This document shows, one piece after another, positions 8,549 to 21,470 of a stretch of DNA of 64,000 bases. The notes beneath the pieces are model-generated. The model saw nothing but the letters and a program-made list of their open reading frames with translations, was not told the origin of the DNA and did not search any database. The position numbers were made by a program, and so were the translations under genes. Source of the stretch: Xanthomonas vesicatoria ATCC 35937. GTDB lineage: Bacteria > Pseudomonadota > Gammaproteobacteria > Xanthomonadales > Xanthomonadaceae. Positions within the stretch are counted from its first letter, which is position 1, and the number at the start of each line of letters is the position of its first letter. The DNA is taken from positions 3,658,001 through 3,722,000 of the forward strand of contig NZ_CP018725.1 in the NCBI RefSeq assembly GCF_001908725.1, read 5' to 3'.

Positions 8549-8842
8549 GCGTCGGTAACAAAACGACCGTGCTCACCGCCAGGCGGGCGAGGCCGGTGTT
8601 CGGTGCGGCATGTGCCCCTCGTGCACTGAGGTCTTGCGTGCGCGGTCTGCACCCACCTGACGACGGCGCGCTACGGTTTGCTAGCCGCTCCGGGCGCGAG
8701 CATCGCCGGTGTCGCATCGTGCACGCATGTGCCGCCGCTCCCAGGCAATGCACAGCCAGCGCAGGCTGTAATCCCGCGACATGCCGCCGCTTGCACCCGC
8801 GGGTGGCTACACTCCAGGGCTGTCTGATATCTGGGGTATGCA
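8549..8842. repeat. Intergenic region with a dispersed ~50-base repeat
   Basis: No supported gene. Bases 8570-8615 (GCTCACCGCCAGGCGGGCGA then GGCCGGTGTTCGGTGCGGCATG) reappear as a near-perfect reverse complement at about 37170-37215, and the GGTGCGGCATGTGCC end recurs near 10538-10552. This identifies a short dispersed intergenic element. Confidence 0.55.
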
Positions 8843-18642: not shown

Positions 18643-18908
18643 GGGCGGCTCGCTTGAGGGCAGGGCGGGAGGATGGAAGCGATTTCATGATAGCGGACTG
18701 TGCGGCACGTCATGACCCGGTGAACGCCGCGCTTCATTGGCGGTTCTGGCGCTGGGAGCTGTCGCGTTCGGTTACGGGCAACGCCAGGACCCTGCGCACG
18801 GCGCCTTCGCGATTGGCGCAAGCCGGCCAGCCGGGACGGGCGGTGCTCTGCACCAGAGTGCATAGCGGCGCTCACCCCGCGGCGCGAAGAACCGGACATA
18901 ATCGGCGC

Positions 18909-19874
18909 ATGGATCGCTATGAACGTATCAACTCCCTGCATCGCCTGCTCAAGTCGGCGCGCTACCCGGTCACGGTGGCGCGGCTGCAGGATGAGCTGAG
19001 CTGCTCCCGCGCCACCGTGTATCGCGACCTGGCGTTCCTGCGCGACGCGCTGATGGCGCCGGTGGAAGGCGATGGCGAATCGGGCTTTCGCTATCTGTCC
19101 GGCGAAAGCGATCGCTTCGAGCTGCCCGGACTGTGGCTGAGTTCGGAAGAACTGCACGCGCTGCTGGCGTCCCAGCAATTGCTTGCGCGCACCGGCGGCG
19201 GGGTGCTGTCGTCGATGCTGGCGCCGCTGCAGCAGCGCATCGAAGGGCTGCTGGCGGCGCAGGCCGGTGTCTCGCAATGGCCGGTAGATCGCGTGCGGGT
19301 GATTCCGCATCGCGGCCGCAAGCTGGACGAAGCCAGCTTCCGCACCGTGGCCTCCGGGGTGCTGGAGCGCAAGCAGCTGAGCTTCGATTACCGCGCACGC
19401 TCCACCGACGAATCGACCAAGCGCACCGTGTCACCACAACGCATCACCCACTACCGCGATAACTGGTACCTGGATGCCTGGGACCACGGCCGTGATGGCG
19501 TGCGCAGCTTCGCGGTGGACCGCATCAACCATGCGCGCCTGCTTGATGCCGCGCCGCGCGATGTGCCCGATAGCGAACTGGATGAGCAGCTGGCCGCCAG
19601 CTACGGCATCTTTTCCGGCGCACCCAAAGGCTGGGCGACCATTGTGTTCAGCGCCAAGGCCGCACGCTGGGTGGCCGACGAGCATTGGCATTCCAAGCAG
19701 CAGGGCCGGTTTTTGCCCGACGGCCGCTATGAGCTCAAATTGCCATACAGCAATTCGCGCGAGCTGCTGATGGACGTGCTGCACTACGGCTCGGACGCGG
19801 AAATCGTTGAGCCCGTCTCGCTGCGCGAGCAGGCCAAGGCCCTGCTGTCGCTGGCGCTGAGCAATTACGATTGA
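18909..19874 (+). CDS. WYL-domain transcriptional regulator (YafY/PafC type)
   Basis: A 321-residue cytoplasmic regulator. Residues 1-60 form an HTH_11/DeoR-like winged helix (LQDELSCSRATVYRDLAFLRDAL). The WYL domain spans about 140-225 (KQLSFDYRARSTDES, NWYLDAWDHGRDGVRSFAVDRI), and a WCX C-terminal extension follows. WYL proteins bind nucleic-acid or nucleotide ligands and often answer DNA damage or control defence genes. No defence genes adjoin it, so the target is unknown. The ATG at 18909 fits the domain start; a longer in-frame opening upstream is non-coding. Confidence 0.9.
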   Translation: MDRYERINSLHRLLKSARYPVTVARLQDELSCSRATVYRDLAFLRDALMAPVEGDGESGFRYLSGESDRFELPGLWLSSEELHALLASQQLLARTGGGVLSSMLAPLQQRIEGLLAAQAGVSQWPVDRVRVIPHRGRKLDEASFRTVASGVLERKQLSFDYRARSTDESTKRTVSPQRITHYRDNWYLDAWDHGRDGVRSFAVDRINHARLLDAAPRDVPDSELDEQLAASYGIFSGAPKGWATIVFSAKAARWVADEHWHSKQQGRFLPDGRYELKLPYSNSRELLMDVLHYGSDAEIVEPVSLREQAKALLSLALSNYD

Positions 19875-19978
19875 GCTTGGCCGGCATTTGGGTCGTTGTG
19901 CGGAGGCCCGATCGCGGCAAGGGCGTGCAGTTCTACGAGACGCATCCCAGCCTAATGCGCTGGGATTGAGTCAATGAC

Positions 19979-20038
19979 GCTCAACCCCTGAATCGAGCCT
20001 GCCCGCGAAGCGAGTTTGGCTTGAATGAATTGTTAGGC
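19979..20038 (-). other. Integron attC recombination site
   Basis: On the minus strand this 60-base site begins GCCTAAC (20038-20032, matching RYYYAAC) and ends GTTGAGC (19985-19979, matching GTTRRRY). Inner arms TTCATTCAAGCC and GGCTCGATTCAG pair at 8 of 12 positions around a short TCGCTTCGCGGG centre. It starts eight bases after the stop codon of the minus-strand gene at 20046-20573, exactly where an attC belongs in a gene cassette. Confidence 0.85.
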
Positions 20039-20608
20039 GCGTGCTTCATATCTTGCCCTCGAGGCGCGCCTGCGTGATTACCCGTTGATCTGCTCGAAGC
20101 TGCTCCCGGGCAACATCATCTGCAGCAAGTGAACTTTGGTACTTGCCAGCAAGTTGAGCGACTTGACGCTGAAGCTTGTGAACCGTGACAAGTCGCGCCT
20201 CGAGCTCTGCTTGAGAGAATGCCAAACAGTCAATGTCCAGGACGGACGCGCCCTCGCCGAGCGAGTTGGCATCTGCCAAGTCTGCATCCCATTGAGTGAG
20301 CCAATGCTTTGTAGCGCCAGAATGATAGGCGCCTTGAGCGGCAGCTAGCCGCGTCCGTGAGGCCTTTGCGCTCTCCAGCAGGGGAGCCAGACCGTGGATA
20401 TCCGATTGCAACGTGCTTTCGGTGCGACGGAGCTCTAGCCGAAGATCAAGAGATTTGAGCTGGCCAGTGCGTCGAAGCGCCATGAAGGCAAGAACAGCCC
20501 CAGCGATGCCAGTAACTGCGCCGATGATGCCCGCAATTGCTCCGGTGTAAGCAAGCCAACTTTGTTCTGACATTGCTTGGCCCGCGAGAAAGATAGTTTA
20601 GCGCCTAA
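19985..20608 (-). mobile_element. Solitary integron gene cassette (624 bp)
   Basis: The stretch has the anatomy of a mobile gene cassette. It is bounded by GTTAGGC on one side (minus strand 20609-20603) and GTTGAGC on the other (19985-19979). Integrase cuts between G and TT of GTTRRRY, giving a unit of 19985-20608. The upstream TTAGGC complements the cassette's own GCCTAAC at 20038-20032, as expected if one circular attC was split by insertion. It carries one gene, a ~30-base leader and no promoter that I can see. No integrase gene lies in the window, so it sits at a secondary site. Its base composition is visibly less GC-rich than its neighbours. Confidence 0.82.
20046..20573 (-). CDS. Cassette-borne hypothetical membrane-anchored protein
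   Basis: A 175-residue protein of unknown function. Residues 7-32 form one glycine/alanine-rich membrane helix (YTGAIAGIIGAVTGIAGAVL). About 140 charged residues follow that read as a helical, probably coiled-coil cytoplasmic or periplasmic domain (for example QLRADQRVITQARLEGK at the end). It has no recognised catalytic motif. It is the only gene of the integron cassette, is read toward the attC site as is normal, and ends eight bases before it. Lower GC and more varied codons than the surrounding genes suggest recent acquisition. Without a visible promoter, expression may depend on the lipocalin transcript reading through from upstream. Confidence 0.75.
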   Translation of the reverse strand: MSEQSWLAYTGAIAGIIGAVTGIAGAVLAFMALRRTGQLKSLDLRLELRRTESTLQSDIHGLAPLLESAKASRTRLAAAQGAYHSGATKHWLTQWDADLADANSLGEGASVLDIDCLAFSQAELEARLVTVHKLQRQVAQLAGKYQSSLAADDVAREQLRADQRVITQARLEGKI

Positions 20609-21174
20609 CGCTTGTTCGGCACTTCAAAGCCCAGGCGGTCCACCTGCTCGCGCAGCTGCGGCACGCGCTTGAGTTTGTCGGTGTAGATGGAATAGTCGTC
20701 GCGCATCTTGTTGACCAGCGTGCGGTACTGCTCGCGGCTCATGTCCGGCTTGCGCGCGAAGATCCAGGCCAGATCGCGGCCCGGGTAGGAGATCAGCATC
20801 CATGAGCCATCCGGTGCGATTTCCAGGATGCGCTGCTTGGCCGGAATCACCTTGTAGAACCACACTCGCCAATCGCGATTGCCGCTTTCCGCATCCACCG
20901 ACGCACGTGCGCTGACTTCCTTTTCCGGCTCGCCAAAACCTTCGCGATACAGATAGCGCACCGCTACCTTGCCGTCTTCGTCCAGGGTGTATTCGTCGCG
21001 GCTGGTGACGTGACCGCGCTCTACCGGATTGGGCATGCGCGCAATCACGTACCAGGTGCCCATGATCTTGGACAGATCGATCGCCGGCTCGGTGGTGGAT
21101 GTGTCCTTGGCATGCGCCACGGGCAGGCCGAGGACGAGCAGGAAAGCGAGGGCGATCGTAACGGTCAGGCGCAT
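20605..21174 (-). CDS. Periplasmic lipocalin (Blc-like)
   Basis: A 189-residue exported lipocalin. It has a signal peptide of about 22 residues ending PVAHA, with no lipobox cysteine, so it is soluble in the periplasm, unlike the lipoprotein Blc of E. coli. The family signature GTWYVIARMPNP follows, then WRVWFYKVIPAKQRILEI and the RKPDMSREQYRTL end typical of bacterial lipocalins. The family binds lysophospholipids or fatty acids and is linked to membrane stress. The stop codon TAG (20607-20605) lies inside the cassette-derived TTAGGC, so the inserted cassette supplies the stop. The start at 21174 precedes a good signal peptide; an in-frame upstream extension is unlikely. Confidence 0.9.
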   Translation of the reverse strand: MRLTVTIALAFLLVLGLPVAHAKDTSTTEPAIDLSKIMGTWYVIARMPNPVERGHVTSRDEYTLDEDGKVAVRYLYREGFGEPEKEVSARASVDAESGNRDWRVWFYKVIPAKQRILEIAPDGSWMLISYPGRDLAWIFARKPDMSREQYRTLVNKMRDDYSIYTDKLKRVPQLREQVDRLGFEVPNKR

Positions 21175-21470
21175 CGCAACATCACAAAGGGGCAATAGGT
21201 GCAGCACACTACCGCATGCAGGGGGCAAGTTCGCGTCAACGGTCGGGTCTGGCGTCGGCAATGGGGTCGTCGGCCACTGGCATCACTCCCGCGATCCTCA
21301 CCCCGGGCTAGCGGATGCCGGACCTGAGTTGCCAATCCCTACCCTACGCGCGTCCCGCGGCGCCTGACCTCGCACAGGCGCAACATTTCGCCTCCCAGGT
21401 CGCAATCGGTGAGATGGGGACAGGCAATTCTGCCGGCCTGTCTTCATCCCTTCTGCCACGGAGTGCCGTC

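What the first reader, a model, noticed from the sequence alone, without database searches (positions are those of the whole stretch)
19979..20610. Lone integron cassette inserted exactly at a lipocalin stop codon, with the stop preserved
Seen: minus-strand G^TTAGGC (20609-20603), a promoterless gene, then attC GCCTAAC...G^TTGAGC ending at 19979. Removing 19985-20608 joins CG to TTGAGC, so the pre-insertion gene read CGT TGA and the present gene reads CGT TAG: same last residue, new stop. GCCTAAC is the exact complement of the displaced TTAGGC half, as integrase insertion predicts. Known: Xanthomonas integrons lie near ilvD; here no intI is present. Because GTTRRRY contains a possible in-frame stop, 3' ends of genes may be safe landing sites.
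Basis: partly seen in the sequence, partly recalled or inferred. Interest (0 to 1): 0.85.

Follow-up and report, generated by a model that had tools for sequence, protein, structure and literature searches.

The report
Integron cassettes replacing a gene's stop
A small mobile gene cassette sits exactly at the end of a lipocalin gene in a Xanthomonas genome and supplies that gene's new stop codon, and eight related species carry cassettes at the same spot, so the end of an ordinary gene seems to have become a long-lived parking place for integron cassettes.

Summary
The attC (20038-19979, minus) scores 57 bits, E 1.6e-13; the next hit in the window is E 0.54. The cassette (19985-20608) starts inside the lipocalin's last codon; its R box gives the stop TAG, and the old TGA lies at 19983-19981.

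The genome has a complete integron with full-length intI at ilvD, about 340 kb away. Nine of 35 Xanthomonas genomes hold cassettes at this site: seven different first cassettes, up to four attC, always lipocalin-Arg-TAG. The flank behind the last attC is mostly shared among them; that of X. floridensis and X. pisi aligns full-length with the empty X. cissicola locus. So this is an old cassette site with turnover, probably not a fresh lone insertion.

Empty sites read CGC TGA in 24 of 26, not CGT TGA. 'Gene ends are safe landing sites' is not supported as a rule: of 36 array starts examined, only this one has a matching box at an ORF stop. The mechanism (attC with a secondary or attG site) is known; the stop renewed by each first cassette looks like a new variant.

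The parts
20605..21174 (-). lipocalin (Blc-like, PF08212), 189 aa from the ATG at 21174 (start chosen by me); last codon CGT, stop TAG 20607-20605 supplied by the cassette
20603..20609 (-). left junction, R box G^TTAGGC; crossover after the G at 20609
   Evidence: similarity to the lipocalin side of 34 relatives ends 0-8 bases past this G
19985..20608 (-). integron cassette, 624 bp
20046..20573 (-). cassette ORF, 175 aa, hydrophobic N-terminal helix and helical rest; family of unknown function
19979..20038 (-). attC, 60 bp; R'' GCCTAAC 20038-20032, R' G^TTGAGC 19985-19979
   Evidence: 57 bits, E 1.6e-13
19981..19983 (-). displaced original lipocalin stop TGA
   Evidence: TGAGCG also follows the last codon in empty relatives such as X. 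cissicola
19944..19966 (-). hairpin behind the cassette, possibly the former end of the lipocalin transcript; no U run
   Evidence: z -3.7 for 19930-19975, but 0.29 for the longer 19875-19985; one search found no terminator-like site here
18654..19874 (+). WYL-domain regulator ORF as listed (true start may lie further in), convergent with the lipocalin; right boundary of the locus

Best explanation
The lipocalin's last-codon/stop junction (CG^YTGA) served as a secondary (attG-type) target of the Xanthomonas integron integrase. Long ago a cassette was joined after the G of the last codon. From then on the G^TTRRRY at the left edge of whichever cassette comes first has supplied T-TAG, so the protein is unchanged and the original TGA is pushed to the far end of the cassettes. 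The site was kept while its cassettes were gained, lost and exchanged, so species now hold different cassettes there; the window's 175-aa cassette is one occupant. The cassettes lie in the lipocalin's direction between two convergent genes, so they are probably read from the lipocalin promoter. Shown: attC, junctions, an empty site in a relative, a largely shared far flank, modular cassette content in four genomes, TAG in all nine. Inferred: integrase as agent, direction and number of events, read-through expression.
For: attC found by a model that excluded it. Similarity of the lipocalin side ends 0-8 bases past the junction G in the 34 relatives. Nine of 35 genomes occupied, ending CGT TAG (8) or CGC TAG (X. 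euvesicatoria). Modular order: X. pisi C1-C2-C3-C4, X. floridensis C1-C4, X. phaseoli and X. euvesicatoria C2-C4; window, G011, X. fragariae, Leaf148 and X. dyei hold others. Far flanks of occupied genomes are similar: 61 of 72 directed comparisons z 5 or more; those of X. floridensis and X. pisi align full-length with empty X. cissicola. Of 115 Xanthomonas attC (model-building ones included), 92 have an R' box that would give a stop in this frame. A full-length intI lies in the same genome.
Against: No relative examined shows the exact product of excision (CGTTGAGCGTCATTGACC). The crossover base G of the last attC is changed in seven of nine occupied genomes (all but window and Leaf148). 11 of 72 far-flank comparisons fall below z 5, the lowest 0.7 (Leaf148 with X. 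euvesicatoria), and the window's own flank matches X. euvesicatoria at only z 1.5-2.8 and empties at 4.9 or less, so one founding event is not shown for all nine. Occupied species are scattered over the local tree (6 Fitch changes). No transcript data; the promoter and terminator scan is uninformative.
Confidence: 0.8

Rival explanations
1. One insertion arose in one lineage and the occupied allele spread between Xanthomonas species by homologous recombination through the flanking genes.
For: Occupied species sit in separate places of the five-gene tree. The X. pisi lipocalin 3' end matches the window (98%) and X. floridensis (97%), not its sister G007 (90%), while its WYL gene is closest to G007 and sp. 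3793. Cassette stretches of X. pisi and X. floridensis are 95-96% identical.
Against: Across clades, occupied-occupied pairs are within 2 points of occupied-empty pairs in all lipocalin and WYL stretches examined, except the last 12 alignment columns of the lipocalin, 97.0 against 92.6%. X. fragariae flanking genes match its empty sister G019 throughout.
Confidence: 0.35
2. Ancestral occupancy with many independent losses, inherited vertically.
For: Sequence shared by distant clades at moderate DNA identity: C4 plus far flank, phaseoli-pisi 80%; last attC plus far flank, fragariae-Leaf148 86%, about what I would expect of non-coding DNA between these species (inference).
Against: By my reading of the tree (not computed) it needs about ten losses, each also ending in CGC TGA or the like with a different intergenic sequence; a clean integrase excision would leave CGTTGAGC.
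Confidence: 0.4
3. Repeated independent insertions into the same attG hotspot.
For: Seven different first cassettes in nine genomes; Leaf148 and X. fragariae have a shorter far flank of their own type, weakly or not similar to those of X. phaseoli and X. euvesicatoria.
Against: Most far flanks, and in four genomes the last cassette C4, are shared, so most of the variation lies inside an existing site.
Confidence: 0.2
4. One reading: a recent lone cassette landing in a lipocalin that ended CGT TGA.
For: The window's last attC keeps an intact G^TT. No match to the cassette's coding part appears among the matches listed for the other 34 genus genomes (DNA, list cut off at weak matches). CGT TGA occurs in 5 of 18 lipocalins of related genera.
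Against: The far flank is similar to those of older multi-cassette loci (X. dyei z 21.5, X. pisi 18.3, X. floridensis 14.7). CGT TGA occurs in one of 26 empty genus genomes only, with an unrelated flank.
Confidence: 0.1

Closest known systems
CALIN / SALIN (clusters or single attC lacking integron-integrase)
   Same: attC cassettes away from intI, in a genome with a full-length intI elsewhere. Conserved CALIN positions are reported in Xanthomonas (seven loci; named lamG, secF, recD, an oxidoreductase gene, an outer membrane protein gene; PMC12444791, abstract and passages). 115 SALINs in 41 Shewanella genomes (PMC9229058, passages).
   Different: The left junction is the stop codon of a host gene. 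The word lipocalin does not occur in the main text of PMC12444791 (0 occurrences), which counted CALINs from two attC up and so passes over lone cassettes; its supplements were not read.
Cassette insertion at secondary / attG sites (Loot et al. 2024, Nat Microbiol; not held; recalled and seen only in other papers' reference lists)
   Same: attC joined to a non-attI site with G^(N)T core; secondary-site consensus GWTMW or GNT (PMC4618277, passages).
   Different: Natural, old, found in several species, and with cassette turnover at one site.
dfrA1 single cassette 21 bp downstream of strB in plasmid p61CH-1m (PMC11213556, passages)
   Same: Lone cassette directly behind a host gene, same direction; the authors infer expression as an operon.
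   Different: Lies 21 bp after the gene; does not replace its stop codon.

Membership tests
integron gene cassette | attC with R''/R' core and L''/L' stem | tested here: met
   57 bits, E 1.6e-13; 18 of 22 pairs; single-sequence folding gave no support
integron gene cassette | left edge GTTRRRY complementary to R'' | tested here: met
   GTTAGGC / GCCTAAC, 0 mismatches
integron gene cassette | mobilised by IntI (excision, insertion) | not testable with these tools
   full-length intI in the genome; homologues of the cassette protein in other species and genera
SALIN | single attC with no integrase beside it | tested here: met
   only attC in the window; the genome's full-length intI is about 340 kb away
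CALIN | two or more attC without integrase | tested here: not met
   one attC in this genome's locus; met at the same locus in X. pisi, Leaf148 and X. floridensis
attG insertion | empty site in a relative with crossover at a G of GNT | tested here: met
   X. cissicola CGC|TGAGCG, flank aligned full-length with X. floridensis and X. pisi; for the window's own flank the match is weaker (score 33, z 3.9)
attG insertion | integrase-dependent insertion shown by experiment | not tested
   needs a laboratory assay

The most novel reading that the evidence does not exclude
Any gene ending in xGN-stop carries a GNT target whose use is self-repairing: the first cassette's R box restores xGT plus, usually, TAG, so the gene end can act as a stand-in attI with the host promoter as Pc, letting cassettes be exchanged for long times without harm. 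The lipocalin locus would be a natural example, spread over the genus, of such a promoter-supplied secondary cassette platform.
Probability: 0.4. Interest if true: 0.65.

Novelty: new variant of a known kind. Interest (0 to 1): 0.5.

Why it matters
How cassettes that land outside integrons persist and become expressed is open. A site where the first cassette itself renews the host gene's stop, with different cassettes in different species, is a testable natural case. It also shows that screens starting at two attC miss real loci: X. fragariae, reported without intI or attC in PMC12444791, has one attC match, and it is here.

Tried and rejected
Single-sequence DNA folding of the attC: no excess stability in either strand. 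Rfam scan: nothing at the locus. Pfam and NCBIfam for the cassette protein: nothing near a cut-off; PADLOC: no family. AlphaFold model, pLDDT 82.6, all helical; no PDB match at E 0.001 or better. Plasmid search with the cassette protein: one hit, 36% identity over 75%, E 7e-7, Paraburkholderia. Model R1 on the nearest homologue's locus L180: 12.5 bits, no clear attC. Pattern search over 297 family genomes with 2 mismatches: too loose to use. Long recombination tracts: no general signal.

General stop-codon rule: one search was given 36 array or lone-cassette starts from 18 genomes, this one included (40 regions were fetched, six near contig ends were left out, and two older loci added). One, the lipocalin, has a box with at most one mismatch to the complement of R'' at the stop of an ORF of 60 aa or more; only ORFs on the array's own strand were tested. 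Four others (L144, L154, L162, L163) have a GTTRRRY with two or more mismatches at the stop of an ORF of 79-167 aa and were not followed up. One search looked at 8 of the 36, those with such a box within 700 bp; a ninth (L166, box 1365 bp away) was left out. Only 22 of 35 genomes were listed attC by attC.

Limits of other counts: the tree is of five local genes, not of the genome; X. dyei has two and X. pisi three of the five. The far-flank comparison with empties used 20 of 26 (four not in the stored set, two over 320 bp), printed the best five per row, and used 60 mononucleotide shuffles although its heading says 100. In one search one of 116 attC was dropped as cut short, and the gene models are crude. 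Loci of genus g8 were partly in the wrong orientation; of 16 only L197, L200, L203, L206 and L207 could be read, and they end CCC TGA or CCC TAG.

Full report
What is there. On the minus strand the lipocalin gene (PF08212, 145 bits) ends ...GTG CCG AAC AAG CGT TAG, and the TAG belongs to the box G^TTAGGC (20609-20603). Then come a 175-aa ORF and a 60-bp attC that ends G^TTGAGC at 19979. A covariance model made from 19 other Xanthomonas attC finds this attC at 57.0 bits, E 1.6e-13; the only other hit up to E 1 is at E 0.54. The WYL regulator gene beyond it is convergent with the lipocalin gene.

The genome. The window lies in a 5.35-Mb genome of three contigs. That genome has a complete integron: full-length intI (507 bits) beside ilvD with a long cassette array, and a second cluster of attC near secF; one search lists 37 attC matches in all at E 0.01, weak ones and one opposite-strand duplicate included. 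So a source of integrase and cassettes exists about 340 kb from the finding. The array near secF does not begin at the secF stop.

The same site in relatives. All 35 genus genomes searched have the lipocalin flank, and in the 34 others its similarity to the window ends 0-8 bases past the junction G. Nine of 35 carry cassettes there: the window, G011, X. dyei, X. euvesicatoria, X. floridensis, X. fragariae, X. phaseoli, X. pisi and X. sp. Leaf148. Model hits at the locus: X. pisi four, Leaf148 four, X. floridensis two, X. dyei three (the locus is broken over two contigs, and one hit is in reverse near a contig end), one each in the others; those of G011, X. phaseoli and the far attC of X. pisi, X. 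floridensis and X. dyei are weak (24.6-31.6 bits). In X. fragariae it is the only attC match in the genome at E 0.01, and no intI is seen: its best matches, 76 bits and less, are of a kind found in every genome, and all 14 control genomes ring too, none over the cut-off. PMC12444791 reports X. fragariae as lacking both, with a threshold of two attC.

What the nine share. All read CG-T-TAG or (X. euvesicatoria) CG-C-TAG, so the lipocalin keeps its last Arg and gets its stop from the first cassette. There are seven different first cassettes. This needs no special selection: of 115 aligned Xanthomonas attC, model-building ones included, 92 have an R' box that gives a stop in this frame, 12 give a sense codon, 11 lack the TT of the core. 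Content is modular: X. pisi C1-C2-C3-C4, X. floridensis C1-C4, X. phaseoli and X. euvesicatoria C2-C4; the C4 reading frame looks shortened or shifted in X. floridensis and X. phaseoli. Other occupants include genes like orphan immunity proteins (Imm35 in G011, SMI1/KNR4 in Leaf148). The far flank beginning TTGAGCGTCATTGACCGCATC or a variant is similar among occupied genomes: 61 of 72 directed comparisons reach z 5 or more, 11 do not, the lowest 0.7.

The empty site. The far flank of X. floridensis and X. pisi aligns from TGAGCG to the WYL end with the whole intergenic sequence of the empty X. cissicola (score 48; z 7.2 and 5.6). There the lipocalin reads CGC|TGAGCG. So the original stop was displaced to the far end of the cassettes, and the crossover is after the G of the last codon. 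For other occupied flanks the best match to an empty is weaker or elsewhere: window z 4.9 with X. prunicola and 3.9 with X. cissicola, X. euvesicatoria 3.6, Leaf148 2.2. Of 26 empty genomes 24 end CGCTGA, one CGCTAA, one CGTTGA. Of 18 lipocalins from related genera, 6 end CGC TGA and 5 CGT TGA.

History. In a tree of five local genes the occupied species fall in four places with empty relatives among them; 6 Fitch changes against a shuffled mean of 8.2, with 3% of 2000 shuffles as low. X. pisi shows a break between lipocalin and WYL affinities; X. fragariae does not. Whether the site is ancestral with many losses or spread by recombination is open.

Is it a rule? Among 36 array or lone-cassette starts in 18 genomes only the lipocalin start has a box matching its R'' at an ORF stop; seven others with a box of at most one mismatch within 700 bp are not at stops, and some of those look like one orthologous place. 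In the window, 12 of 46 modelled genes offer GNT, 2 GTT and 1 GTTRRRY (the lipocalin itself) across last codon and stop, against 1581, 262 and 13 wholly intergenic sites. Hitting a stop by chance among such harmless sites is thus about 1% for GNT or GTT and about 7% for the full box, for one event that was picked because it looked striking. No rule follows.

The cassette protein. 59 homologues at E 1e-3 or better, up to 93% identical, in Xanthomonas, Stenotrophomonas, a Burkholderiales MAG, Mangrovitalea and unnamed metagenome contigs, but in only two other genomes of 299 sampled in the order, one of them a weak match. This patchy spread fits a mobile cassette. Conserved residues mostly follow the hydrophobic helix (K40, L42, D43, R45, R49, S72, W91, D98). 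Its function is unknown; a small helical protein, probably membrane-anchored, is the most that the model allows.

Expression. The cassette is promoterless by inspection, and the simple scan found no sigma-70-type site in 19700-21400, where 0.3 were expected by chance, so the scan says little. A hairpin lies behind the attC (z -3.7 for 46 nt, but 0.29 when 111 nt are folded). Read-through from the lipocalin is inferred only.

Literature. Read as abstract or passages only: PMC12444791, PMC12901181, PMC12690207, PMC11023631, PMC11641012, PMC4618277, PMC9229058, PMC11213556. Loot et al. 2024 on attG is not held and is recalled. The searches listed no title or abstract start about cassettes replacing a host gene's stop; that is a statement about those listings only.

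Noticed in passing
L098 (G000:C1:3325000-3340000): Complete integron of the window's genome: ilvD, full-length intI and a long attC array
   Followed up: partly
L139 (G000:C1:3075820-3076770): A further small attC cluster in the window's genome (two weak hits), with a degenerate first attC
   Followed up: no
L023 / L136 (X. fragariae, G020): The only attC match of a genome without a recognisable intI is the one at the lipocalin stop; its cassette has no ORF of 60 aa or more
   Followed up: partly
G011:C6:2998198-2999452 and 5064815-5066069: Two attC clusters with identical scores in opposite orientation, apparently a duplication
   Followed up: no
L052 7310-7369 (X. dyei): attC in reverse orientation near a contig end inside the lipocalin locus; assembly break or rearrangement
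   Followed up: no
L013/L044 (Leaf148) and L050 (G011): SMI1/KNR4 and Imm35 genes as cassettes at the same site, like orphan immunity genes
   Followed up: partly
L054 and L068 (X. floridensis, X. phaseoli): The shared last cassette C4 seems to have a shortened or shifted reading frame
   Followed up: no
window 8610-8686: Xanthomonas sRNA sX9 (Rfam RF02228)
   Followed up: no
L154, L162, L144, L163: GTTRRRY boxes at ORF stops ahead of other attC clusters, with two or more mismatches to the complement of the first R''
   Followed up: no
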